Assembly: GCF_011006175.1 (NCBI RefSeq)
Contig: NZ_CP048795.1
Span: 682,001-746,000 of the forward strand
DNA from: Hydrogenobacter sp. T-8
GTDB lineage: Bacteria; Aquificota; Aquificia; Aquificales; Aquificaceae
Length of the DNA stretch: 64,000 nt
Direction: 5' to 3'
The notes beneath the pieces were generated by a model that had not been told where the DNA came from, did not search any database, and worked only from the letters and a program-made list of their open reading frames with translations. A program made the position numbers and the translations under genes. Shown in pieces: positions 6,478 through 62,754 of this stretch (position 1 is its first letter; every line of letters starts with the position of its first letter).

Positions 6478-7425
6478 GTGTCTTCAAAAGACATAGCCCT
6501 AAAAGACATATTTGAAGAAATCCCTTACAGGCTTAGCAAAATACTTGCACCAGCACCCATAAAGGAACTGCTACCCACAAACTTCCCTTCCACAGAGCTA
6601 AGAGTGGACTTTTTAGCAAGGCTTGAGGATGAAAGCATACTGCATATAGAGTTCCAATCCTTTAACGATACAAACATGCCCTTTAGAATGCTACGCTATT
6701 ACCTTGCTATATTGGAGAGATATCCAACCAGTCCCATAAAACAGCTCCTTGTTTATGTAGGAAACAGAAAGTTAAGGATGAAGTCAAGGCTAAGGCTTAG
6801 AAACCTTAGCTTTAGCTATGAGATGATTGACATAAGGCAGGTAGACTGCAAAGTGCTTTTGGAAAGCCCAGACCCTATGGATAGGCTTTTAGCTTGTTTG
6901 TGTAAGGTGGAGGACGAGGCATATCTGATAGAGAAACTCATAAAGACTATGGAAGGCATGAACGAGGAAGAAAGGAAGGACTATCTACTGAAGGCATTGA
7001 CACTGACAGAGTTAAGACCTAACTTAAGGATAAAGTTGACAGAGGAGGTCAGGCACATGCCTATAGTGGTCAGACCTGAGGATATAAGATTGCCAAAGAG
7101 AAAGTTGAGAAAGGACATTCTGTATAGGCTTGGGCTTGAGGAGGGTAAGCAGATTGGACTTGAAGAGGGTAAACAGATTGGGCTTGAAGAAGGTAAGCGG
7201 ATTGGACTTGAGGAAGGTAAACAGATTGGACTGGAGGAAGGTCTTTTAAAGTCTGCACAGGATATGCTTATAGCCATAATTGAGGGTAAACTTGGCTATG
7301 TGCCAGAAGGTCTGGAGGGAAGGGTAAGGGAGATAAAAGATAGAGAGTTTTTGTATGCTTTGATTAAAAAGTTGATAGCCTCTGAAAAGGTGTTGGAGGT
7401 CTTGAAAAAGGAGTTGAATATCTAA
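6478..7425 (+). CDS. Rpn-family PD-(D/E)XK nuclease/transposase-like protein, copy 1
   Basis: Protein of 315 residues of the Rpn (recombination-promoting nuclease) / transposase_31-like group. The nuclease core is visible as LRVDFLARLEDESILHIEFQSF, where D and the E-x-Q motif correspond to the PD-(D/E)XK active site. A helical region follows. From about residue 219 the octapeptide GLEEGKQI is repeated four and a half times. The GTG start is chosen because the paralogue at 10877 aligns from KDIALKD and TATAAT lies just upstream. The paralogue is almost identical over about 230 residues but has only one octapeptide. These proteins move or damage DNA in other bacteria; whether this one is active is not known. 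Confidence 0.8.
   Translation: MSSKDIALKDIFEEIPYRLSKILAPAPIKELLPTNFPSTELRVDFLARLEDESILHIEFQSFNDTNMPFRMLRYYLAILERYPTSPIKQLLVYVGNRKLRMKSRLRLRNLSFSYEMIDIRQVDCKVLLESPDPMDRLLACLCKVEDEAYLIEKLIKTMEGMNEEERKDYLLKALTLTELRPNLRIKLTEEVRHMPIVVRPEDIRLPKRKLRKDILYRLGLEEGKQIGLEEGKQIGLEEGKRIGLEEGKQIGLEEGLLKSAQDMLIAIIEGKLGYVPEGLEGRVREIKDREFLYALIKKLIASEKVLEVLKKELNI
7132..7242 (+). repeat. 24-bp tandem repeat encoding GLEEGKQI
   Basis: Four full 24-bp units (7132-7155, 7156-7179, 7180-7203, 7204-7227) and a partial fifth encode GLEEGKQI or GLEEGKRI. The reading frame is kept. The neighbouring paralogue carries one unit, so the copy number has changed since duplication. Confidence 0.9.
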
Positions 7426-10400: not shown

Positions 10401-10857
10401 TTATCTTTTCAAGACTTTCAAAACTCAAAGTATTCAAAGCCTTTTCAAAGGTTCTGTATCTTTTACCCTTTTCCACAAAGTAGGTATAACGCTTATAGCT
10501 ACTAAGCTCTACCTTTTTTCCCTTGTATAGTGCATAGACAAGGGAGAGTCTAAAGTTTCCAGTTTCGTCATAGAAGGCAAAGAGTCCAACATCAAAAAAG
10601 TCATTTTTGAGTATGTTTTTTGCAAGCTCAAATTGTTTTTTCTTTCCACTTCTTTCAGAAAGCTCAGCTTGGGTTTTTATAGCCCACACACCAAACCTAT
10701 TGTTATCCTCAAGCTCCTTCTGTGCCAAAAGCTCAATATCTGTAAAGTTTTCTACAGGTGCGTATTTTTCTCTAAGGAAGCGAAAGTCTTCGTCCTTTTC
10801 TTCCAAAAACCTTACTAAAACCTCTGGGCTAAAGCTGTCTATAAGATCCTGAAGCAT
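7450..10857 (-). CDS. Eco57I-type adenine-specific DNA methylase / type IIG-like R-M protein
   Basis: Large protein of about 1135 residues. The gamma-class N6-adenine methyltransferase core carries motif I (VLDPAVGSGAF) and motif IV (IVIGNPPYVRQERL). A C-terminal TaqI-like specificity region follows (RIYFGIKTGFNEAFIID). The N-terminal 400 residues resemble those of Eco57I-family fusion enzymes, but I see no clear PD-(D/E)XK triad there, so cleavage by this protein is unproven. The start is set at the ATG at 10857 (MLQDLIDSF). The longer open frame to 11034 runs through the divergent Rpn gene, while TAAAAT lies 7 nt before 10857. It is probably one half of a defence module with the helicase at 11800-15033. 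Confidence 0.85.
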   Translation of the reverse strand: MLQDLIDSFSPEVLVRFLEEKDEDFRFLREKYAPVENFTDIELLAQKELEDNNRFGVWAIKTQAELSERSGKKKQFELAKNILKNDFFDVGLFAFYDETGNFRLSLVYALYKGKKVELSSYKRYTYFVEKGKRYRTFEKALNTLSFESLEKIKESFSRKPLIKEFYREIQNWYAWALKDPQVFFPSGRKEEHLIRLITRLVFVWFLKEKNLVPSLIFEPESLKHIVKDFMKGTNYYNAILQNLFFATLNTPAKGRRFANNEDFLKNRQDFGVKNLYRYKELLEISEEEFIRLFERVPFINGGLFECLDEDKNYVDGFTRNEKYRARIPDYLFFSEERTQDLSDFYGERKRERVKGLINILKDYNFTTDESTPLDVEVSLDPELLGHIFENLLASYNPETQETARKLTGSYYTPIEIVDFMVESALLEYFKRKTNIDEKRLEELFSSERMPELTEEERRQIVESIDSIKVLDPAVGSGAFPMAVLHKLVRLLEKVDPDNSLWKEKQKEKVLKSAEEIFERESKEVREELLKELNENFDQALREPDYARKLYIIQNSIYGVDIQPIAIQITKLRFFLTLLIDQKIDPSKENLGIKPLPHLETNFVSANTLIKLQRPQHSLMPREFNDLRKELLELYKRHFSVRTRQEKKRIQEKAKEIREKIKEMLQRSGWSSELAKKIADFDIFDQLSEADWFDPEWMFGVEGFDIVIGNPPYVRQERLKETKELLRQNYPNIYESTADLYVYFIVRGYELLKEGGVLSYITSNKWMRARYGRKLRKYLRENTRIELLLDFAGHRVFESATVDTSIVILSKIKEKNPAIKVAVADRELKEGSLREFIRSKVFYLSQEKLSDDVYVLEEEEVLRLKEKIEKVGKPLKDWDVRIYFGIKTGFNEAFIIDSQRREEILANCRDEEERRRTEEIIKQCIKGRNIKRYIYEAEDKYMLVLYRNVNIEKLSSIKAHLEKYKSFLIKRAGNQKWYELQAPPSKEKLEFLLKDKIGYSDIGFKFCYVPSGIVGDNTTYFIIPEGNLSIYYLLGLLNSKVVSFYYTHFLGARLGGRTTRGFTEYMNFLPIPPITKENQAIAEQIEELVSQILQIKAQDPNADTQELERQIDQLVYQLYKLTPEEIELIERKLTHN

Positions 10858-10858
10858 G

Positions 10859-10870
10859 TATGATATTTTA
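10859..10870. promoter_or_regulatory. Shared divergent -10 region (methylase / Rpn copy 2)
   Basis: Leftward TAAAAT (10870-10865) lies 7 nt before the methylase ATG at 10857. Rightward TATGAT (10859-10864) lies 12 nt before the ATG at 10877. The start codons are 19 bp apart. Confidence 0.45.
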
Positions 10871-10876
10871 ACTTGT

Positions 10877-11737
10877 ATGCAGAAGGATATAGCTTTAAAA
10901 GATGTTTTTGAGGAAATACCACACAGGCTTAGCAAAATACTCACACCAGCACCCATAAAAGAGCTACTGCCTACCAACTTCCCTTCCACAGAGTTAAGAG
11001 TGGACTTTTTGGCAAGGCTTGAGGATGAAAGCATATTGCATATAGAGTTTCAGTCTTTTAACGACATTAACATGCCTTTCAGAATGCTACGCTATTACCT
11101 TGCTATATTGGAGAGATATCCAACCAGTCCTATAAAACAGCTCCTTGTGTATGTGGGAAACAGAAAGCTAAGAATGAAGTCAAGGCTAAGGCTTAGAAAT
11201 CTTAGCTTTAGCTATGAGATACTTGACATAAGGCAGATAGACTGCAGAGTGCTTTTGGAAAGCCCAGACCCTATGGATAGGCTTTTAGCTTGTTTGTGTA
11301 AGGTAGAGGATGAGGCATATCTGATAGAGAAACTCATAAAGACTATGGAAGGCATGAACGAGGAAGAAAGGAAGGACTATCTACTGAAAGCCTTGACATT
11401 GACAGAACTGAGACCTAACTTAAGGATAAAGTTGACAGAGGAGGTTAGGCACATGCCTATAGTGGTTAGACCTGAGGATATAAGATTGCCAAAGAGAAAG
11501 TTGAGAAAGGACATTCTGTATAGGCTTGGACTTGAGGAGGGTAAGCAGATTGGAAAGTTAGAGTTCGCACAAAATATGGTTATAACTCTCGTAGAGAGTA
11601 AGCTTGGCTATGTGCCAGAGGGCTTGGAGGAAAGAGTAAGAGAGATAAAAGACAGAGATTTTTTACACGCTTTGATTAAAAAGTTGATAAGCTCTGAGAA
11701 AGTATTGGAAGTGTTGAAGAAGGAGCTAAATCTCTAA
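10877..11737 (+). CDS. Rpn-family PD-(D/E)XK nuclease/transposase-like protein, copy 2
   Basis: Close paralogue of the gene at 6478, with the same LRVDFLARL...HIEFQSF nuclease motif and matching sequence through LRKDILYRLGLEEGKQIG. It then lacks the extra octapeptide repeats and diverges moderately in the last 70 residues. I place the start at ATG 10877 (MQKDIALKD) because copy 1 aligns from here; an in-frame ATG at 10856 would put the start codon upstream of the probable -10 element. Product 286 residues. Together with copy 1 it brackets the methylase gene as direct repeats. Confidence 0.8.
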   Translation: MQKDIALKDVFEEIPHRLSKILTPAPIKELLPTNFPSTELRVDFLARLEDESILHIEFQSFNDINMPFRMLRYYLAILERYPTSPIKQLLVYVGNRKLRMKSRLRLRNLSFSYEILDIRQIDCRVLLESPDPMDRLLACLCKVEDEAYLIEKLIKTMEGMNEEERKDYLLKALTLTELRPNLRIKLTEEVRHMPIVVRPEDIRLPKRKLRKDILYRLGLEEGKQIGKLEFAQNMVITLVESKLGYVPEGLEERVREIKDRDFLHALIKKLISSEKVLEVLKKELNL

Positions 11738-54502: not shown

Positions 54503-55388
54503 GTTGCTAATCTACCGTGTGGAGTTGAAACCAAATAGGATGGTCTGCTTGTCTATGGATATCTTGGTTGCTAATCTACCGTGTGGAGTTGAAACTCGAT
54601 TAGCCATTTCTCTGTTATGCTCATAACCTCTGTTGCTAATCTACCGTGTGGAGTTGAAACTTTGCTGCAGAAGCTATTAGATAGATGTCAAGCGTTGTTG
54701 CTAATCTACCGTGTGGAGTTGAAACATTTTTTCAGGCGGGTTTCCTTTCCACAAACTCACATGTTGCTAATCTACCGTGTGGAGTTGAAACGTTATACTA
54801 AGGATCAATTTTGGGTTAAAGAACATCGTTGCTAATCTACCGTGTGGAGTTGAAACTCGCGCACCACTTCTGCCAGTATCTGGCAGAAGCGGGGTTGCTA
54901 ATCTACCGTGTGGAGTTGAAACCTCTTAACCTTTCAAATCCCTCATCCAACCTTAAGAAGTTGCTAATCTACCGTGTGGAGTTGAAACTCAAAGAGGTGA
55001 TGTCCTTCTCCTTTAAATCCTCCTTAAGTTGCTAATCTACCGTGTGGAGTTGAAACTGTACCAAAAAGGCTTTACCTACTGCCTTTACGAATAAGTTGCT
55101 AATCTACCGTGTGGAGTTGAAACTATGAACTTACTGAAGGAAGGTATATCCGCACTACTGTTGCTAATCTACCGTGTGGAGTTGAAACTCAAAGAGGTGA
55201 TGTCCTTCTCCTTTAAATCCTCCTTAAGTTGCTAATCTACCGTGTGGAGTTGAAACTATGCTGTGTCTATCCGCCTCAAGACCTGTTGTTTCTGTTGCTA
55301 ATCTACCGTGTGGAGTTGAAACTAAGAGTGCGAGGGAACTCTCTTATCCTTTTGCTAAGGTTGCTAATCCACCGTGTGGAGTTGAAAC
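54503..55388 (+). CRISPR. CRISPR array, 14 repeats of 29 bp and 13 spacers
   Basis: Repeats begin GTTGCTAATC and end GTTGAAAC; they start at 54503, 54567, 54632, 54697, 54763, 54828, 54894, 54960, 55028, 55095, 55160, 55228, 55294 and 55360. Spacers are 35-39 nt. The last repeat has one T-to-C change at its 11th base, marking the trailer end. The repeat can fold as UCUAC-CGU-GUGGA, leaving the 8-nt handle GUUGAAAC, as in Cas6-processed type I or III systems. Spacers 8 (54989-55027) and 11 (55189-55227) are identical. No cas1, cas2, cas6 or effector gene is in the window. Confidence 0.98.
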
Positions 55389-56246: not shown

Positions 56247-56291
56247 TCAGAAAAACTAACTTTTTGGCGTTAAGTATTTTATGTGAGAGAT

Positions 56292-59200
56292 ATGAAAGAC
56301 TTAACCATTCTTGAAGGTTTTGTCTTTGAGGGGGCTTTTAAGATAGGATTTCTACAAAGGGTAGCACCTGATTATCTCAAAGGTTTTAAAAGAATTTTCT
56401 TTGACCTTTTGAAAACCGAAGGGTTAAAGGAAGAGCTTATAGAAGAACTTCAAAAGCCTATAGAGGAGTGGGGCAATATTGGCACAACTATAACACCTGA
56501 AAATGCGGAGAGGGTATATACGCTTATCACATATCTGCTTGGATACCACGGTGGTTTTTTGTATGCGGGAGATGGCAAAAACATAAAGCTTGAAAAGTTT
56601 GAAATGGGTGAGGAATCCTCAGACATTGTTTGGAGAAATGCAGACCTCGTTTACATAAAGGGCGAAACCCTCTACATAGTGGACTTTAAGCTCTCTGGAC
56701 TTATCTCTTGGTTGAAGGAAGTTTTTGATAGAGGTAGAAGTGAGGAACTTAGGGACTTGCCAAGACTTCCAGTAGCCAACCCAGGAGTGCCAGTTAATAT
56801 TTCTCTGGGAGAGTTGGACTTTTCTAAATTTGTTAAAAACTTCCTCTCTCTAAAGCATACACTTATGGACTTGAAAGAAGTCTTTGTGGAGATAAAGGGC
56901 TTTTCTCAATTGATTTGTTATGCGGTGGACTATCTTACGGAAAAGGGAGATAAAGGGCTAAGGGAATTGTGCCTTGAGCTGTTGTATCCCTCTGCAGAGT
57001 CCTACAGGATAAGGTTTATGCTTTCTGGGGGTGTATCTGGGCTTTCCAAATACAGAGAGGAAGTAAAGGAGATATACAGGAGTTTAAGGAGTAAGGAATG
57101 GGCTTACGATGAGCTTGATGAAACTGTGGAAAAGAGGGTTGGGAAAAGGGAAAGGTTGGAAAGGAAAATAAAGGAAGAGATACAAGTGTATCTTGAGGAG
57201 ATAAAGCGGAGGGAAGAAGCTCCCATTTTTGTAAACACTAATCCTATACAGGAAGCAAGAAAGGATGTTAGAGAAAAACTGGAAAACTTCCTCTCCTCTC
57301 AAGGGAACTGCAAGGCTATTGCACTGCTTCATTCCGCAGGTAGTGGAAAAACTTCTACATTGAGAAACCTCATACTTAACTCTGAGGGAAATCACATAGT
57401 GCTATACATGGCTACGAGGATAAGCCTTGTAGAGAAGGAAAGGTATAGTGTGGAGAAGAGTGGCAAGCCTGTGAAGGTCATATACGAAAGGAGAAAACCC
57501 TATGAAGGCAATCTATTAAAGCATACAGGTGAAGGTTTTGAGCACACGGAAAATAAAGAAGGTATCATCAAAAGGATAGTGGATAAGGTTTTGGATGCGA
57601 TAAGGGAAAAGCATTCACAAATATGGGGTTTTGCCACTATACAAGCGATCGTGGACATGCCTACTAAAAATACCGCAGAGCACCTTGACAAGCTCCTAAG
57701 GTCAAACGCCCTTGAAAATTACCACATTCATATTGTTCTTGATGAGTTCTTCGGATACAGAAATGGTCTTGATGCAGTGCATAGAATGTTTGAGTTCCTT
57801 TTAAAGGCAAAGAGGATGGGAGGTAAGGCTTATCTGTATCTTTTTGATGCCAACGGATACTCTCCAGAGCTTTTAGAAAGGCTTATGTATGAGTTTAGGT
57901 CTTATGGAGTTGTTCCAGACTCTCTTATCCTCTGTGGTTATAAACCTGCTTTGCAAACTCAATACGAGGAAATTCCCTTCGAAATATACGCTAAGCATGG
58001 ATACCCTGCCAAGGGTCTATACATATACAGGAAGTTTATACTTGACGTGGGACACAAGGAGCAAGACAGGTTAATAGAGCTTATAGGGGACTACGTTATC
58101 CAAAACCTGCAAAGGGAAAGCACTGCATTTTTGTATGTGCAAGACAAGGAGATGATAACAAAACTTTCTGAATACTTTAACACCAGAGGTGTTTCTAACC
58201 TTTACATAACCGCAAGTTCCAGAAAAAGTCAAAGGGACATAAACGAGGGAAGGCAAGATATTATTATGGGCACTTCTGCAGTTTCGAGGGGTCTTGATTT
58301 TAGCAGACCGCACAAACCTGTGGAAAAAATCTTTGTAGTTATAACAGACTGGGGTATAGAGCAAAACCTTGTTGAAGTTATACAAGCTATTTCAAGGGCA
58401 AGGGGCGACGAAGTTACAGAACAAAAACCTAAGCATATCCATCTTATCCATGTGATTCAAAAAGAAAATCCATACGTAGTTGAAAAGATAACTCAGCTCG
58501 TAGAGTATCAGGACAAGGAATTGGTGAGCCTTTTTTACAGAAGAGAGCAGCTAAAACAAAAATTGTTGCTTGACTTGGTGGTCCAAAGGATAATAGAGGA
58601 CTTTCTTAGAACTCCAAACAGGTCTGTTATAGTGCCTATTCCTGCACAGCACATCACTATTTATAAAATGCATCGCTTTTCTGAGCTTGAAAATATAATA
58701 AAGTTTCTTGAAGATGTCTACATGATGGAATCAAAAAACCAAGAGGTATCAATGTATATACGTCTGCTGGTAAAAGAGATTCTATCTGGTATGTTTATGT
58801 ATACAAACGATGTGCCAAAGAACCTTGAAAAAGTGGAATATTACCATCCATACATACTTATAAGAGGTAAACTTCATATGGGCTTTGACAATCAGAGAAG
58901 AAAGAGTGCAAAGGATTATTTAGAAAAGGTTAAGGCTAAACTTATGGAGCATAACGAGGATAAGACAAGGGAAATAGAAGAGTTTCTAAACGTTATTGCA
59001 CCTAAGGAGGTATACGAGACCATCTTTCTTATACCAGTTTACTCTTGGGTTTTTACAAAGTATGTTTTGGGCGAGCAGGGAGACGAGTACCTTAGGTTTA
59101 ATATCTCAGGTAGGGTGGGCAGAGGTGGTGCGGTGGTGCTTGGTGCAAACATGGAAATAACCACGAGCTGTAAGAACATAATAGGTAGAAAGGAATACGC

Positions 59201-59303
59201 GGTTATTCCTCTTGGAGAGGACTATCCTTACAGAGAGGTTCTAAGTGGACGCTTTGCCAAGTTTCCTATAGAATTTATTTACAAACTTCTTGTGGAGGGG
59301 TAA
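56292..59303 (+). CDS. RecB/Cas4-like nuclease fused to an SF2-type helicase
   Basis: About 1003 residues (GTG 56283 is an alternative start; TATTTT is 11 nt before ATG 56292). The N-terminal third has a RecB-type PD-(D/E)XK core: ADLVYIKGETLYIVDFKL (D and DxK) and FSQLICYAVDYL (QxxxY). The helicase follows: Walker A LLHSAGSGKTS near residue 350, motif II IVLDEFFG, motif V MGTSAVSRGLDF and motif VI VIQAISRARGD. The last 300 residues are unrecognised. The next gene follows after 3 bp. DNA unwinding and cleavage in defence are inferred from the domains. Confidence 0.75.
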   Translation: MKDLTILEGFVFEGAFKIGFLQRVAPDYLKGFKRIFFDLLKTEGLKEELIEELQKPIEEWGNIGTTITPENAERVYTLITYLLGYHGGFLYAGDGKNIKLEKFEMGEESSDIVWRNADLVYIKGETLYIVDFKLSGLISWLKEVFDRGRSEELRDLPRLPVANPGVPVNISLGELDFSKFVKNFLSLKHTLMDLKEVFVEIKGFSQLICYAVDYLTEKGDKGLRELCLELLYPSAESYRIRFMLSGGVSGLSKYREEVKEIYRSLRSKEWAYDELDETVEKRVGKRERLERKIKEEIQVYLEEIKRREEAPIFVNTNPIQEARKDVREKLENFLSSQGNCKAIALLHSAGSGKTSTLRNLILNSEGNHIVLYMATRISLVEKERYSVEKSGKPVKVIYERRKPYEGNLLKHTGEGFEHTENKEGIIKRIVDKVLDAIREKHSQIWGFATIQAIVDMPTKNTAEHLDKLLRSNALENYHIHIVLDEFFGYRNGLDAVHRMFEFLLKAKRMGGKAYLYLFDANGYSPELLERLMYEFRSYGVVPDSLILCGYKPALQTQYEEIPFEIYAKHGYPAKGLYIYRKFILDVGHKEQDRLIELIGDYVIQNLQRESTAFLYVQDKEMITKLSEYFNTRGVSNLYITASSRKSQRDINEGRQDIIMGTSAVSRGLDFSRPHKPVEKIFVVITDWGIEQNLVEVIQAISRARGDEVTEQKPKHIHLIHVIQKENPYVVEKITQLVEYQDKELVSLFYRREQLKQKLLLDLVVQRIIEDFLRTPNRSVIVPIPAQHITIYKMHRFSELENIIKFLEDVYMMESKNQEVSMYIRLLVKEILSGMFMYTNDVPKNLEKVEYYHPYILIRGKLHMGFDNQRRKSAKDYLEKVKAKLMEHNEDKTREIEEFLNVIAPKEVYETIFLIPVYSWVFTKYVLGEQGDEYLRFNISGRVGRGGAVVLGANMEITTSCKNIIGRKEYAVIPLGEDYPYREVLSGRFAKFPIEFIYKLLVEG

Positions 59304-59306
59304 GCG

Positions 59307-61628
59307 GTGGAGAAGGAACTGCTTGGAAGACAGTGGGACGATAGGATGGATGCCTTTTCTAACGGTGAGTTTATAAGCAGAAATTTTGTCTGTGCGGGGC
59401 TTTTCTACAATGGAAACTCGCAATACTTGGACAATATGGCAAAATTGGCTAAGAAGCTCATAGATAGGCAGAAGGTGGACGGAGAGCTCAAGGGATTTTT
59501 GGAAAATCTAAACTACAAAGTTTCTGGGAATGCCATATATAGCAGGCAAGTGGTTAACAGATGGGTAAACCTGTTTAAGGTTGTGAAGTCTGACCAAAAG
59601 GTAGGTTTTTATAGGAAGAGTGCGAATGAGAGGTTTGACGTTGCAGAGCTGGACTTGGGAAATCCTTCCGATATTCAACACTATGCAGGTATTATCTTTT
59701 TGAGAATAAGAGGCTATGAGGATCAAGAGCTTTCTGAAGAGCTAAAGTATGACCTAAGACAAGAGCTCTTGGAGGAGTGGCTTGAGGTTGCGGAAGACCG
59801 ATGGGTAAGGGAGTATCTTAAAAGGGTTAAAGAAATCTTAGAGGACATCAAGCGTGGGGTATATGGTTCACACTATCGCTTTCCCTTCTCTACTTTAGCT
59901 TACTATCTTTTTCCTGTAAACTTTGACCGTTTTGAAAACGTTATACTCGTCTCAAGCGTTAGTATGTATAACAGAAGACCAGATACCAAGCAAAACCTTT
60001 GGCAGGAACTACAAAAGACTAAAGACTTTGAAGACTTAAAAGGACACTTGGAGAGCAAGGGTAAAAGTCTAAGGGACTTGGAAGAGCTTTTAGACCAAGC
60101 CTTTAAAGAGGAGAACTTAGCTAGGCTTCGCAAGGATTGGTTGAAGTTTATTAAAAAGGTGCTAAACGGAGGAATAGAAAGTAGAAGACTTGTGGGTGCT
60201 TTTCTTAAGAAGAGGGATAGAGGCAAGAAAACCTCTGTGAGCTACGGCTATTACGAAGTGCCAGCAAGGAACTTGGAGCTTTTCCTTTTCTACGAGGATG
60301 GAATAGAAAACAGGTATATAGAGCTTTTAAAGGATAGACTAGCTAAATTTAAATACGCTGGGGATGTGAAAATTAGTGTGAAGAATGAAAAACCAATACC
60401 AATACATTCACTTTTTGGAGGAGAGGAATATTTCAGAATTCTAAAGGGCTTGGAAGGTGGTTCAAAGGAGCTAAGACACGAGGAATCTGTGAAACTTCTA
60501 TATGCCCTTGCTTATTTTACCGCAAGGTTAAACGGATTTTTAAGGTTAAGTATGGAGCAGAAGGAAAAGCTTATAGGAGCACTTTTGCTTTTGAATACAA
60601 ACCTTGAAAGAGACCAAAGGTATGACTTTTGGGATAGTATTAGCTTTTTGTATGACTACTACGGAGTGCCCTTTCAAACCGTAACAAAACGTTTTCTTTC
60701 TATACTTGAAAATGGTAAAGGAAGTTCAAACGCAATCAAAAACATGCTTATAAGCCTCTACAAGGACACAAAGATACTTCACTTTAACTTTGATGGCTTT
60801 AAACTTCCAGAAGAGGTTGTGGTCTACGTTATACTTGAAAAGCCATCACCACGGTTCTTCTATGAAAAAAGCGAAATGTCCTTAGTTTCCGCAAGTAGAC
60901 ACTACATGTATGAGGTTTACACTATTAAATCAAAGGGTAATGAGGCAAGTATTGAGCTTGAGGATAAGTTTTTTGTGATGTGCGATTATTTTGGAGACGA
61001 TGTGGATAGATTGAAGGAGTACATAAAGCAGAGGATAGAGGACAAAAGAAGCAGGTTCTGTTTTATCAGTGCATTAAAGGATGGATATGCAAAGGTTCTT
61101 TATGAGGATATGTGTAGCTACAGCGATTTTGAAAGGAAAGCCCTTTTTATAAGATACAAGGAACTAAAGACCGCATACGTTTCTCAGAGGGCGGACAATG
61201 ACTGCCTTGTTATATACACTCAGCAGTTTAATGAGCTTGCAAAAACTCTGGGTATAAGGCTTGATGAGGACGCAGCGGCCATAGCCATAAAACCTGCCAG
61301 ACCTTCAAGGGAATTTGAAGACATATATCATCCTGCCCTGCAGGTCTTTTACACCGAGAAAATAGGGTGGTCATCTGATGAGGTTTACTCTCAACAGCAC
61401 AACCTTTTCCTCTTTACCCTTATCGCCCTTTCCATGTATGAAAGCGAAGCCTTTCAAGTGCCTTACAGCAAGCTAAGTCTATACTCAAAGGAAAGGAATA
61501 TCTATCTGAATATAAACCGTCAAACAAACGAGGGGCTTAAAAGCTCCTACAGGTTTCCCTTAAGAACTCTCTTGTATGAATTGGTGGAATTCTTCAGACA
61601 TCTCCCTGGCGATAAGGAAGTGAGTTAA
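59307..61628 (+). CDS. Divergent Argonaute/PIWI-like protein (candidate)
   Basis: 773 residues starting at GTG 59307, with GGAGGGG upstream. No plain family match, but the C-terminal 330 residues follow the pAgo MID-PIWI order: YYGVPFQTV (G453, Q457, like GIPxQ) then a helix NAIKNMLISLYKDTK (like NIALxLxAKxGG). Next come strand EVVVYVILEK (about 502), FISALKDG (D592, like IHRDG), ALFIRYKEL, and finally LFLFTLIALSMYESEAFQVPYSKLSLYSK (718-728), like the LT...P...YAH/YAD end. The first catalytic Asp appears replaced by Leu and the last His/Asp by Lys728, so slicing is unlikely. The N-terminal half is unrecognised. It is probably a guide-binding partner of the upstream nuclease-helicase. Fold assignment is by eye. 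Confidence 0.5.
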   Translation: MEKELLGRQWDDRMDAFSNGEFISRNFVCAGLFYNGNSQYLDNMAKLAKKLIDRQKVDGELKGFLENLNYKVSGNAIYSRQVVNRWVNLFKVVKSDQKVGFYRKSANERFDVAELDLGNPSDIQHYAGIIFLRIRGYEDQELSEELKYDLRQELLEEWLEVAEDRWVREYLKRVKEILEDIKRGVYGSHYRFPFSTLAYYLFPVNFDRFENVILVSSVSMYNRRPDTKQNLWQELQKTKDFEDLKGHLESKGKSLRDLEELLDQAFKEENLARLRKDWLKFIKKVLNGGIESRRLVGAFLKKRDRGKKTSVSYGYYEVPARNLELFLFYEDGIENRYIELLKDRLAKFKYAGDVKISVKNEKPIPIHSLFGGEEYFRILKGLEGGSKELRHEESVKLLYALAYFTARLNGFLRLSMEQKEKLIGALLLLNTNLERDQRYDFWDSISFLYDYYGVPFQTVTKRFLSILENGKGSSNAIKNMLISLYKDTKILHFNFDGFKLPEEVVVYVILEKPSPRFFYEKSEMSLVSASRHYMYEVYTIKSKGNEASIELEDKFFVMCDYFGDDVDRLKEYIKQRIEDKRSRFCFISALKDGYAKVLYEDMCSYSDFERKALFIRYKELKTAYVSQRADNDCLVIYTQQFNELAKTLGIRLDEDAAAIAIKPARPSREFEDIYHPALQVFYTEKIGWSSDEVYSQQHNLFLFTLIALSMYESEAFQVPYSKLSLYSKERNIYLNINRQTNEGLKSSYRFPLRTLLYELVEFFRHLPGDKEVS

Positions 61629-61644
61629 AATATATATTATTCCC

Positions 61645-61971
61645 ATGGAACTCATAAGCATAGAAGACTTTCTAAAATTAGACATAAGGCTTGCGAAGGT
61701 TCTTTCTGCGGAGAGGGTAGAAGGCTCGGAAAAACTTCTAAAGCTGAGGGTTTCTCTTGGAGAAGAGGAGAGGACGCTGATGGCTGGTATAGCAAAGCAC
61801 TATAGCCCAGAGGAGTTGGTGGGTAAGAAGGTGCTAATGCTGGCAAACCTAAAGCCAAGAAAGATATTTGGCGTGGAGTCTCAGGGTATGGTGCTGGCAC
61901 TCTCTGATGGAGAAAACCTATCTGTGATTGTTCCAGATAGAGATATAAAAGAGGGTGCAAAGGCAAGTTAA
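61645..61971 (+). CDS. Trbp111/MetRS-beta-type tRNA-binding protein
   Basis: 108 residues forming one OB-fold tRNA-binding domain: FLKLDIRLAKVLSAERVEGSEKLLKLRVSLG...ERTLMAGIAKHYSPEELVGKKVLMLANLKPRKIFGVESQGMVL. It matches the free-standing methionyl-tRNA synthetase beta subunit/Trbp111 known from Aquifex aeolicus. It binds the corner of L-shaped tRNAs as a dimer. AT-rich -10-like sequence (TAAAAT, TATTAT) lies just upstream. Confidence 0.88.
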   Translation: MELISIEDFLKLDIRLAKVLSAERVEGSEKLLKLRVSLGEEERTLMAGIAKHYSPEELVGKKVLMLANLKPRKIFGVESQGMVLALSDGENLSVIVPDRDIKEGAKAS

Positions 61972-61974
61972 AGT

Positions 61975-62754
61975 ATGAGGTTCATAGAGCCTATAAAAGG
62001 ACTTGAGCTTGAGTTTGCCATTATACCTTCTGAAAAGATATTGATACCCTCTATTCAACGTGAGCTTTCGGATATGCACATAAAGAGACTTATGGAATCC
62101 ATGGAAAAGGTGGGTTTTGTAGAACCCATATCGGTAGTTCCTACAGAAGATGGTTATTATGAAGTTATAAACGGACAACACAGGGTTGAGGCTGGTAGAC
62201 AGCTTGGCATGAAGGAGTTCCCAGCCATAATATTGCCACCCTCTGCCAAGGACTACATAATAGCCCTAAACATAGAAAAGGTTCCTTCCTTAAAGGACAA
62301 AGCCCATCAGGCTTATGAGATATTTATGTCCTATCTCCAAAGGGACCCAAACCTTTCCGAATACCGTTTAGAAAGGTTCATAGAGGATGCCCATTTAATT
62401 ACAGTGGGCTTTGTGGTAGACAGATATGAAGACAAGAAGTTTCCTGGCTACGCCTTTGAAAAAGTTCTCAAAAAAGTGGACGCCTTTCTGGAAAAGCCTT
62501 TGAGCGAAGCGGAAAAGGAAAGGGAAGAAAGAGCTAAGATCCTTCTCAAAGCAAAAGAGGTTTTAAACAAAAGATACGAAGAACTTGGATTAAAAAACGC
62601 ACTTCAAAAAGAGGCTATAGTCTCAAAAGCTTTTCAGAGTGTTTATGGAAAGTATGTGAGAATGTTAAGTGAAGACTTTTACCAGGTTTTTGAAAAACTC
62701 ATCCCTGCAATAGAAAGCGTTAGCTTTGAAGAGGGAGAGCTTGAAGAGTTTTAG
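61975..62754 (+). CDS. ParB/Srx-domain protein
   Basis: 259 residues. Residues 15-100 form a ParB-like N-terminal domain with IQRELSDMHIKRLMESMEKVGFVEPISV and the NGQHRVEAGRQLG motif (GxxR-type CTP/phosphate loop). A helical C-terminal part follows, without an obvious ParB helix-turn-helix or parA neighbour. It is therefore more likely a ParB-fold enzyme or regulator than a partition protein. It ends 2 bp before the tmRNA 3' end. Confidence 0.75.
   Translation: MRFIEPIKGLELEFAIIPSEKILIPSIQRELSDMHIKRLMESMEKVGFVEPISVVPTEDGYYEVINGQHRVEAGRQLGMKEFPAIILPPSAKDYIIALNIEKVPSLKDKAHQAYEIFMSYLQRDPNLSEYRLERFIEDAHLITVGFVVDRYEDKKFPGYAFEKVLKKVDAFLEKPLSEAEKEREERAKILLKAKEVLNKRYEELGLKNALQKEAIVSKAFQSVYGKYVRMLSEDFYQVFEKLIPAIESVSFEEGELEEF

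What the first reader, a model, noticed from the sequence alone, without database searches (positions are those of the whole stretch)
56292..61628. Two-gene module: RecB-like nuclease-helicase plus divergent Argonaute/PIWI-like protein
Seen: a nuclease core (VDFK, QLICY) fused to an SF2 helicase, followed after 3 bp by a 773-residue protein. The order of motifs in its last 330 residues fits pAgo MID-PIWI (GVPFQ, SLYKDTK, VYVILEK, ISALKDG, VPYSKLSLYSK). Known: catalytically dead pAgos usually recruit a partner effector nuclease or similar enzyme, and long pAgos often sit beside Cas4-like nucleases and helicases. Inference: an inactive guide-binding protein directs the nuclease-helicase against invading DNA or RNA. 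The PIWI-RE family is another possible placement. It sits in the same island as a CRISPR array.
Basis: partly seen in the sequence, partly recalled or inferred. Interest (0 to 1): 0.9.

Follow-up and report, generated by a model that had tools for sequence, protein, structure and literature searches.

The report
Argonaute-like protein with nuclease-helicase partner
This hot-spring bacterium carries a two-gene unit that pairs a cutting-and-unwinding enzyme with a very divergent, apparently non-cutting relative of Argonaute (the guide-reading protein of RNA interference); it looks like a new variant of bacterial systems that use such a pair to find and destroy invading plasmids or other DNA.

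Summary
H (56283-59303, 1006 aa) has an N-terminal RecB/Cas4-type nuclease motif set and an SF2 helicase. A (59307-61628, 773 aa) follows after 3 bp, its ribosome-binding site inside the end of H. No sequence library names A, but an AlphaFold2 model (pLDDT 74, pTM 0.78) matches only Argonaute-superfamily chains at significance: 29 of 29 Foldseek hits with E<=1e-3. The Argonaute catalytic aspartates are not conserved; the nuclease and helicase residues of H are, in 17 relatives. All 20 Aquificota genomes with this type of H have A directly downstream, and the two proteins' identities correlate at r=0.97. Best explanation: a guide-loaded, non-cutting Argonaute recruits a nuclease-helicase onto invading DNA, working like DdmDE and ApsAB. 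It is not filed as a member: there the nuclease is C-terminal, here N-terminal, and no sequence relationship was found. PIWI-RE is not supported; the CRISPR array is one of several dispersed arrays, unlinked to the pair. Guide binding, target and activity are untested. Sister H genes elsewhere in Aquificota and on cyanobacterial and proteobacterial plasmids have lost the nuclease lysine and pair with large unnamed proteins, hinting at a wider group.

The parts
56283..59303 (+). Gene H: 1006-aa nuclease-helicase (GTG start; ATG at 56292 is an alternative)
   Evidence: ORF; relatives in 20 Aquificota genomes; dN/dS about 0.15-0.23
56505..57020 (+). H residues 75-246: predicted RecB/Cas4-type PD-(D/E)XK nuclease core; D121, D134-x-K136, E203, Q209-x3-Y213
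   Evidence: Residues conserved in 17 H proteins of three subtypes; alpha-beta-beta-beta-alpha-beta order in the AF2 model. No library match, so this is motif and topology evidence only
57243..58502 (+). H residues 321-740: SF2 helicase core (Walker A AGSGKT 352-357, DE 487-488, FDA 521-523, Q701...R705-x-R707)
   Evidence: Pfam Helicase_C 8e-5; fold matches to SF2 helicases, VIA Z up to 19.5 over about 303-906; motifs conserved in all 17
58503..59300 (+). H residues 741-1006: C-terminal region of unknown role, with a strongly conserved tail (EDYPYxEVLSGRF) in subtype I
   Evidence: Alignment; no library match
59294..59300 (+). Ribosome-binding site of A (GGAGGGG) inside the last codons of H, implying translational coupling
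   Evidence: Sequence; similar arrangement in L017, L022, L023
59307..61628 (+). Gene A: 773-aa divergent Argonaute-fold protein
   Evidence: AF2 model pLDDT 74, pTM 0.78; all 29 Foldseek PDB hits with E<=1e-3 belong to the Argonaute superfamily; VIA Z up to 10.6 over 113-765
60564..60794 (+). A residues 420-496: MID-like domain with Y439, W442, P455-x-Q457-T458, K478-N479, S483, K/R486, K/R489
   Evidence: Residues kept through three subtypes; secondary structure
60813..61601 (+). A residues 503-765: PIWI (RNase H-like) domain with degenerate active site; E511 on the first strand, S/T at the end of the fourth strand (ISA/ITA), K722 (Y-S/A-K) near the C-terminus
   Evidence: Secondary structure, alignment; mapping to DEDX positions is inferred from strand order
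54503..55388 (.). CRISPR array, 14 repeats of 29 nt; NOT considered part of the system
   Evidence: same repeat at five other sites in the genome; no array near the pair in relatives

Best explanation
A two-component defence module that works like DdmDE/ApsAB. Protein A is a catalytically inactive Argonaute-fold protein that holds a short nucleic-acid guide and finds complementary sequence in an invading element (most likely plasmid or other multicopy DNA). It then recruits protein H, which loads on the opened DNA, travels along it with its SF2 helicase motor and cuts it with its N-terminal RecB/Cas4-type nuclease. Shown here: the fold of A, conserved nuclease and helicase residues in H, loss of conserved PIWI catalytic residues, obligate pairing and co-inheritance. 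Inferred: guide binding, the A-H complex, a DNA target, and defence as the function.
For: Argonaute fold of A. The helicase motifs and the D-x-K / Q-x3-Y nuclease residues of H are conserved in 17 H proteins. H is immediately upstream of A on the same strand in 20 of 20 genomes, with gaps of +3 bp down to overlaps. Identity matrices of A and H correlate at r=0.975 (Mantel 0/2000). Purifying selection acts on both. Distribution is patchy and genomic context changes, twice beside known defence genes: a type III-A CRISPR operon in L024; a type IIG restriction enzyme and an AAA/AriA-like gene in L023. Decayed copies exist (L028 internal deletion, L080 with stops). In the two characterised systems of the same make-up an inactive Argonaute-like protein works with a helicase-nuclease against plasmids (PMC12409362, PMC11096173).
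Against: No sequence similarity of A to any Argonaute, DdmE or other family was found. Domain order in H is the reverse of DdmD and ApsA. The canonical Y/R-x3-K part of the MID guide pocket is missing (only Q457 and K478/K486/K489 remain). No experiment exists for any relative. In most genomes the neighbours are housekeeping genes, not defence islands. The AF2 model rests on 10 sequences, several of them fragments.
Confidence: 0.7

Rival explanations
1. Abortive-infection version: A recognises an invader's nucleic acid with a guide and switches H on as an indiscriminate DNA-degrading machine that kills or stalls the cell, as in BPAN and SPARDA systems.
For: Inactive long-B and short pAgos commonly do this with associated nucleases (PMC10620215); Foldseek hits include SPARDA and SPARTA; the nuclease residues are conserved.
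Against: The partner has a helicase motor, as in DdmD and ApsA, which act on the plasmid itself; the abortive long-B effectors described in PMC10620215 are nuclease, SIR2 or membrane proteins, and the paper does not mention helicases.
Confidence: 0.15
2. True DdmDE or ApsAB homologue in which the nuclease domain was moved from the C- to the N-terminus of the helicase, rather than an independent assembly of the same parts.
For: Same parts and same gene order (helicase-nuclease then Argonaute-like protein), both very divergent; ApsA/DdmD form a wide family (PMC11096173).
Against: H and A profiles hit no chain labelled DdmD/DdmE among PDB sequences at E<=10, and Foldseek's significant list for A has no DdmE; neither shows absence of relationship. 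Nuclease position differs; sister families (L047, L049, L093) keep the N-terminal nuclease-like region, so this order is old.
Confidence: 0.25
3. Member of the pPIWI-RE systems (REase + DinG helicase + PIWI-RE).
For: PIWI fold with helicase and nuclease; conserved R738 and E714/E758 in A.
Against: No PF13032 match for nine A proteins or in 136 genomes; two genes instead of three; H has no conserved cysteine set of the DinG Fe-S cluster.
Confidence: 0.03
4. CRISPR-associated effector that uses crRNAs from the adjacent array as guides.
For: Array 0.9 kb upstream of H in the window; a type III-A operon follows the pair in L024.
Against: Same repeat is dispersed at about six sites in the genome; no array within the fetched stretches around the pair in 17 other genomes, some on short contigs.
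Confidence: 0.03
5. Housekeeping or repair role (for example resolving replication intermediates or R-loops), not defence.
For: Often sits among housekeeping genes; some long-A pAgos help resolve replicated DNA (introduction of PMC10620215).
Against: Present in only 20 of 136 genomes of the phylum, patchy within one genus, at varying sites, with decayed copies.
Confidence: 0.07

Closest known systems
DdmDE (Vibrio cholerae plasmid defence)
   Same: Two-gene operon of an SF2 helicase plus PD-(D/E)XK nuclease with a catalytically inactive Argonaute protein that was not recognisable by sequence (PMC12409362)
   Different: DdmD has helicase N-terminal and nuclease C-terminal; H has the nuclease N-terminal. 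No sequence match of H or A to PDB chains of that name
ApsAB (E. coli ST38 antiplasmid system)
   Same: Nuclease/helicase protein followed by a novel Argonaute-like protein, both unrecognised by sequence (PMC11096173)
   Different: ApsA is longer with a C-terminal nuclease (D1420...D1433-V-K1435); ApsB carries Y-x3-K...QG...K and is described as lacking typical PIWI and PAZ; A lacks Y-x3-K and has a recognisable PIWI fold
BPAN and other long-B pAgo systems
   Same: Full-length but inactive Argonaute acting through a separate effector; RsAgo (long-B) is the top Foldseek hit
   Different: pAgo gene is upstream of the effector there; the effectors described have no helicase; A is not matched by the Pfam Piwi model
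pPIWI-RE systems
   Same: Helicase + nuclease + PIWI-fold protein
   Different: Three genes, DinG-type Fe-S helicase, separate nuclease gene, PF13032-detectable PIWI (PMC3702460)
SPARDA / SPARTA short pAgo systems
   Same: MID-PIWI fold similar enough to be among the significant hits
   Different: Short pAgo with APAZ-effector partner; A extends N-terminally and H has no APAZ match

Membership tests
Argonaute superfamily (by fold) | MID plus RNase H-like PIWI domain | tested here: met
   AF2 model; 29/29 Foldseek hits E<=1e-3 are Argonaute/PIWI or the Med13-type chain 7kpv_D, next hit E=0.042 unrelated; VIA Z 10.6, 345 residues, rmsd 4.8
Argonaute superfamily (by sequence) | Match to Pfam Piwi PF02171 or profile homology to pAgos | tested here: not met
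   No Piwi match for any of 9 A proteins; PF02171 does not ring in this genome; hhalign against six Aquificota pAgos E 0.13-0.23
Argonaute superfamily (by sequence) | 5'-end pocket Y/R-x3-K...Q...K in MID | tested here: inconclusive
   Q457 and K478, K/R486, K/R489 kept; no conserved Y-x3-K at the expected spacing
Argonaute superfamily (by fold) | PAZ domain (long pAgo) | tested here: inconclusive
   Region 225-286 is helical in the model; part 113-220 aligns with full-length Agos, but no separate domain test was possible
DdmDE | Helicase-nuclease gene followed by an inactive Argonaute gene | tested here: met
   20/20 genomes; no conserved catalytic aspartates in PIWI, judged by conservation and strand order
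DdmDE | DdmD architecture: N-terminal SF2 helicase, C-terminal PD-(D/E)XK nuclease | tested here: not met
   Nuclease motifs at residues 121-213, helicase 321-740; architecture of DdmD from PMC12409362
DdmDE | Homology of A to DdmE and of H to DdmD | tested here: inconclusive
   No such chain among PDB sequence hits up to E=10 nor in the Foldseek/VIA rows shown; no DdmD/E sequence was on hand for a direct test
DdmDE | DNA-guided plasmid elimination | not testable with these tools
   Needs experiment
ApsAB | C-terminal nuclease in ApsA; Y-x3-K...QG...K in ApsB | tested here: not met
   N-terminal nuclease; Q457-T458 instead of QG, no Y-x3-K (PMC11096173)
pPIWI-RE | PF13032 RNaseH_pPIWI_RE | tested here: not met
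   No match for 9 A proteins; 0 of 136 genomes, though no positive control rang
pPIWI-RE | Operon with DinG-type Fe-S helicase and a separate nuclease gene | tested here: not met
   Two-gene unit; no conserved cysteine set in H
pPIWI-RE | Family-specific R and E in the beta-sheet extension | tested here: inconclusive
   R738, E714 and E758 are conserved in A, but positions cannot be equated without coordinates

The most novel reading that the evidence does not exclude
H and its sister helicases (Aquificota types IV and V; 998-1328-aa proteins on cyanobacterial, Acinetobacter, Acetobacter and Cupriavidus plasmids) define a large unrecognised class of two-protein systems whose partner is always an unrecognisable Argonaute-fold protein. 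Only the Aquificaceae branch keeps a working nuclease (D-x-K). The others (K replaced by S, T or Y) would be guide-directed translocases without their own blade, several of them carried by conjugative plasmids, perhaps for plasmid-against-plasmid competition.
Probability: 0.25. Interest if true: 0.8.

Novelty: new variant of a known kind. Interest (0 to 1): 0.62.

Why it matters
It adds a further, sequence-unrecognisable example of an inactive Argonaute tied to a nuclease-helicase, with the nuclease at the opposite end of the motor, in extreme thermophiles whose proteins suit structural work and, if programmable, heat-stable tools. It makes testable whether Argonaute plus helicase-nuclease defence arose more than once. 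The apparently nuclease-dead sister families ask what such a motor does without its own cutter. The libraries used here (PADLOC 2023, Pfam, NCBIfam) do not recognise A, and H only reaches generic helicase models, so such loci are missed by automatic annotation.

Tried and rejected
Sequence identification of A: Pfam, PADLOC, NCBIfam, PDB by phmmer and by profile: nothing. Profile comparison of A with six pAgos from the phylum, with the type IV and V partners and with the plasmid-borne partners P: no significant match, so homology of those partners to A is a motif impression only ('KN...S' helix, ESE-like C-terminus) and is not claimed. DdmE does not appear in the Foldseek or VIA rows shown for A; this does not exclude it. 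PIWI-RE: rejected as placement. CRISPR linkage: rejected. Viral, plasmid or phage copies: A in viral contigs none, A in plasmids none, H in phages none, viral fold library no significant hit. Nearby tRNA_bind (61645-61971) and ParB-domain (61975-62754) genes: shared only with close relatives and so not part of it. PbeA similarity of subtype II/III H (PADLOC, 3e-7 and 6e-5) concerns the helicase region only.
Full report
What was checked. The Shine-Dalgarno of A (GGAGGGG, 59294-59300) sits in the last codons of H, and a similar arrangement occurs in the three relatives read at the junction. All quoted motifs are present.

Sequence libraries do not recognise A: no Pfam, PADLOC, NCBIfam or PDB-sequence match, nor with a nine-member profile. 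H reaches only generic helicase models (Helicase_C 8e-5; DEAD-box helicase C-domains in the PDB).

Relatives. The window belongs to a 1.8-Mb, single-contig genome whose relatives are labelled Aquificaceae (Thermocrinis, Hydrogenobacter). Searches of Aquificota genomes found A in 22 of 136 and the helicase in 31 of 136 with a broad profile at E<=1e-8, the weakest of which are probably generic helicases. Three subtypes of the H-A pair were seen: I (window and most others), II (G067, G069, G078) and III (G025). In all 20 genomes with an H of subtypes I-III, A lies immediately downstream on the same strand, in some cases running off the contig end there; the G003 copy is split over two contigs. 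Gaps range from +3 bp to overlaps. In one genome a 295-aa remnant of A with its middle deleted survives without H (L028), and one pair has frame breaks (L080). Pairwise identities of A and H correlate at r=0.975 over 13 pairs (0.958 for subtype I alone; Mantel 0 of 2000 both times). For the closest pair dN is 5 to 9 times lower than dS in A and 4 to 6.5 times lower in H, depending on method. The two genes are therefore inherited as one unit under purifying selection.

Fold of A. AlphaFold2 with ten aligned sequences gave pLDDT 74 and pTM 0.78. Foldseek against the PDB: all 29 hits with E<=1e-3 are Argonaute-superfamily chains: RsAgo 7.5e-8, A. aeolicus Ago, SPARDA, SPARTA, A. fulgidus Piwi, KmAgo, Siwi, yeast Ago, and one chain of the yeast CKM (7kpv_D), read here as Med13, which is known to hold a PIWI module (PMC3702460). 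The next hit is unrelated at 0.042. VIA-align gives Z up to 10.6 over 345 residues, with ranges from residue 113 to 765, against both full-length and MID-PIWI-only Argonautes. The secondary structure fits: MID 420-496, PIWI 503-765, an N-terminal/L1-like part 113-220 and a helical stretch 225-286 where PAZ would be; the last two assignments are tentative. The viral structure library gave nothing significant.

Active sites. Across 16 A proteins of three subtypes the conserved residues include Y439, W442, P455, Q457, T458, K478, N479, S483 (MID), E511, H532, Y617, F681, S713, E714, K722, R738, Y748 and E758 (PIWI). By strand order, the first catalytic aspartate position falls near E511, the end of the fourth strand carries S/T (ISA/ITA/ISQ/ITQ), and the C-terminal catalytic position falls in Y-S/A-K (K722). 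No aspartate is conserved, so target cutting by A is unlikely. Half of the guide 5'-end pocket (Q, K) is kept and half (Y/R-x3-K) is not. In H, D121, D134-x-K136, E203, Q209-x3-Y213 and the helicase motifs (Walker A K356, D487-E488, D522, Q701, R705, R707) are conserved in all 17 H proteins. The AF2 model of H (pLDDT 74) shows an alpha-beta-beta-beta-alpha-beta core at 75-246 and an SF2 helicase at about 321-906 (VIA Z up to 19.5). The N-terminal part was not tested by itself against structures.

Context. The pair changes genomic site. In L017, L020 and L021, as in the window, it follows a moeB/thiF-like gene; elsewhere it sits among unrelated housekeeping genes, directly upstream of a type III-A CRISPR operon (L024: Cas10, Csm2, Csm3) or downstream of a type IIG restriction enzyme and AAA/AriA-like genes (L023). 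The CRISPR array in the window uses a repeat found at five further places of the chromosome (about 75, 312, 445, 1179 and 1615 kb), and no array was seen near the pair in 17 other genomes, some of them on short contigs. The array is a neighbour, not a part.

Mechanism. The parts list, gene order and inactive Argonaute match two characterised antiplasmid systems. In DdmDE the inactive pAgo DdmE uses DNA guides to find plasmids and loads the autoinhibited helicase-nuclease DdmD onto the displaced strand (PMC12409362). [quoted passage not shown] The best explanation is that A and H work in the same way. Shown: fold, residues, pairing, co-inheritance, patchy distribution. Inferred: guides, complex, DNA target, defence. 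The main mechanistic rival is abortive infection as in BPAN (PMC10620215).

Membership. It works like DdmDE/ApsAB but is not filed as a member: the nuclease is at the other end of the protein, the ApsB pocket motif is absent, and no sequence relationship was detected. Absence of DdmD/DdmE from the hit lists is not evidence against homology. PIWI-RE (PMC3702460) is not supported: no PF13032 match, no Fe-S cysteines, two genes rather than three.

Wider family. H has sisters: type IV pairs in G043 (L047, H then a 790-aa protein) and G133 (L130, 754-aa protein then H); type V in G041, G045, G047 and G039 (L049, L132, L050, L131), where a 1087-1094-aa protein lies nearby in two of them; and plasmid-borne K proteins in cyanobacteria, Acinetobacter, Acetobacter and Cupriavidus preceded by 1012-1198-aa partners. 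Helicase homology is clear (hhalign probability 99%; hmmsearch 1e-15 to 1e-42). In every sister protein whose site could be read, the D-x-K lysine is S, T or Y. The partners of types IV, V and K could not be linked to A by profile comparison; whether they are Argonautes is open.

Literature. Searches of the held open-access library for this combination found DdmDE, ApsAB, BPAN and PIWI-RE papers but none describing an N-terminal-nuclease version or these Aquificota loci; subscription papers and preprints are not covered.

Verdict. A real, conserved two-gene system with an Argonaute-fold protein that sequence methods miss, and a nuclease-helicase of reversed architecture: a new variant of a known kind.

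Noticed in passing
L093 1421-8127; L094; L096 1100-8664; L097; L098; L099; L100: Plasmid-borne two-gene units in cyanobacteria and Proteobacteria: an unknown protein of about 1012-1198 aa followed by a 998-1328-aa helicase homologous to H whose nuclease lysine is replaced; several plasmids are typed conjugative. No library names the partner.
   Followed up: partly
L049 7413-16793; L132 1-8533; L050 7613-11101; L131 6874-10434: Type V H sisters (1161-1186 aa, D-x-S) in one Aquificota genus; in two genomes a 1087-1094-aa protein lies a few genes away in opposite orientation, with a weak full-length profile similarity to the cyanobacterial partners (E 0.001).
   Followed up: partly
L028 10248-11135: 295-aa remnant of A in which N-terminal (about 27-189) and C-terminal (about 651-769) parts are joined in frame, without H: an internal deletion that still reads as an open frame.
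   Followed up: partly
window 54503-55388: CRISPR array of 14 repeats with one repeat-spacer-repeat stretch duplicated exactly (54960-55057 and 55160-55257); the same repeat recurs at five other chromosomal sites.
   Followed up: partly
window 6478-7425 and 10856-11737: Two paralogous ORFs (direct repeats 88% and 80% identical) flank a 1194-aa ORF on the opposite strand, as after a duplication.
   Followed up: no
window 61975-62754: 259-aa protein with a ParB/Noc-like N-terminal domain and weak GmrSD_N similarity next to the pair, shared with the closest relative; function unknown.
   Followed up: no
L025, L078, L079 (context of the pair): The pair lies between different housekeeping genes in each genome without visible mobility genes, so how it moves is unclear.
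   Followed up: no
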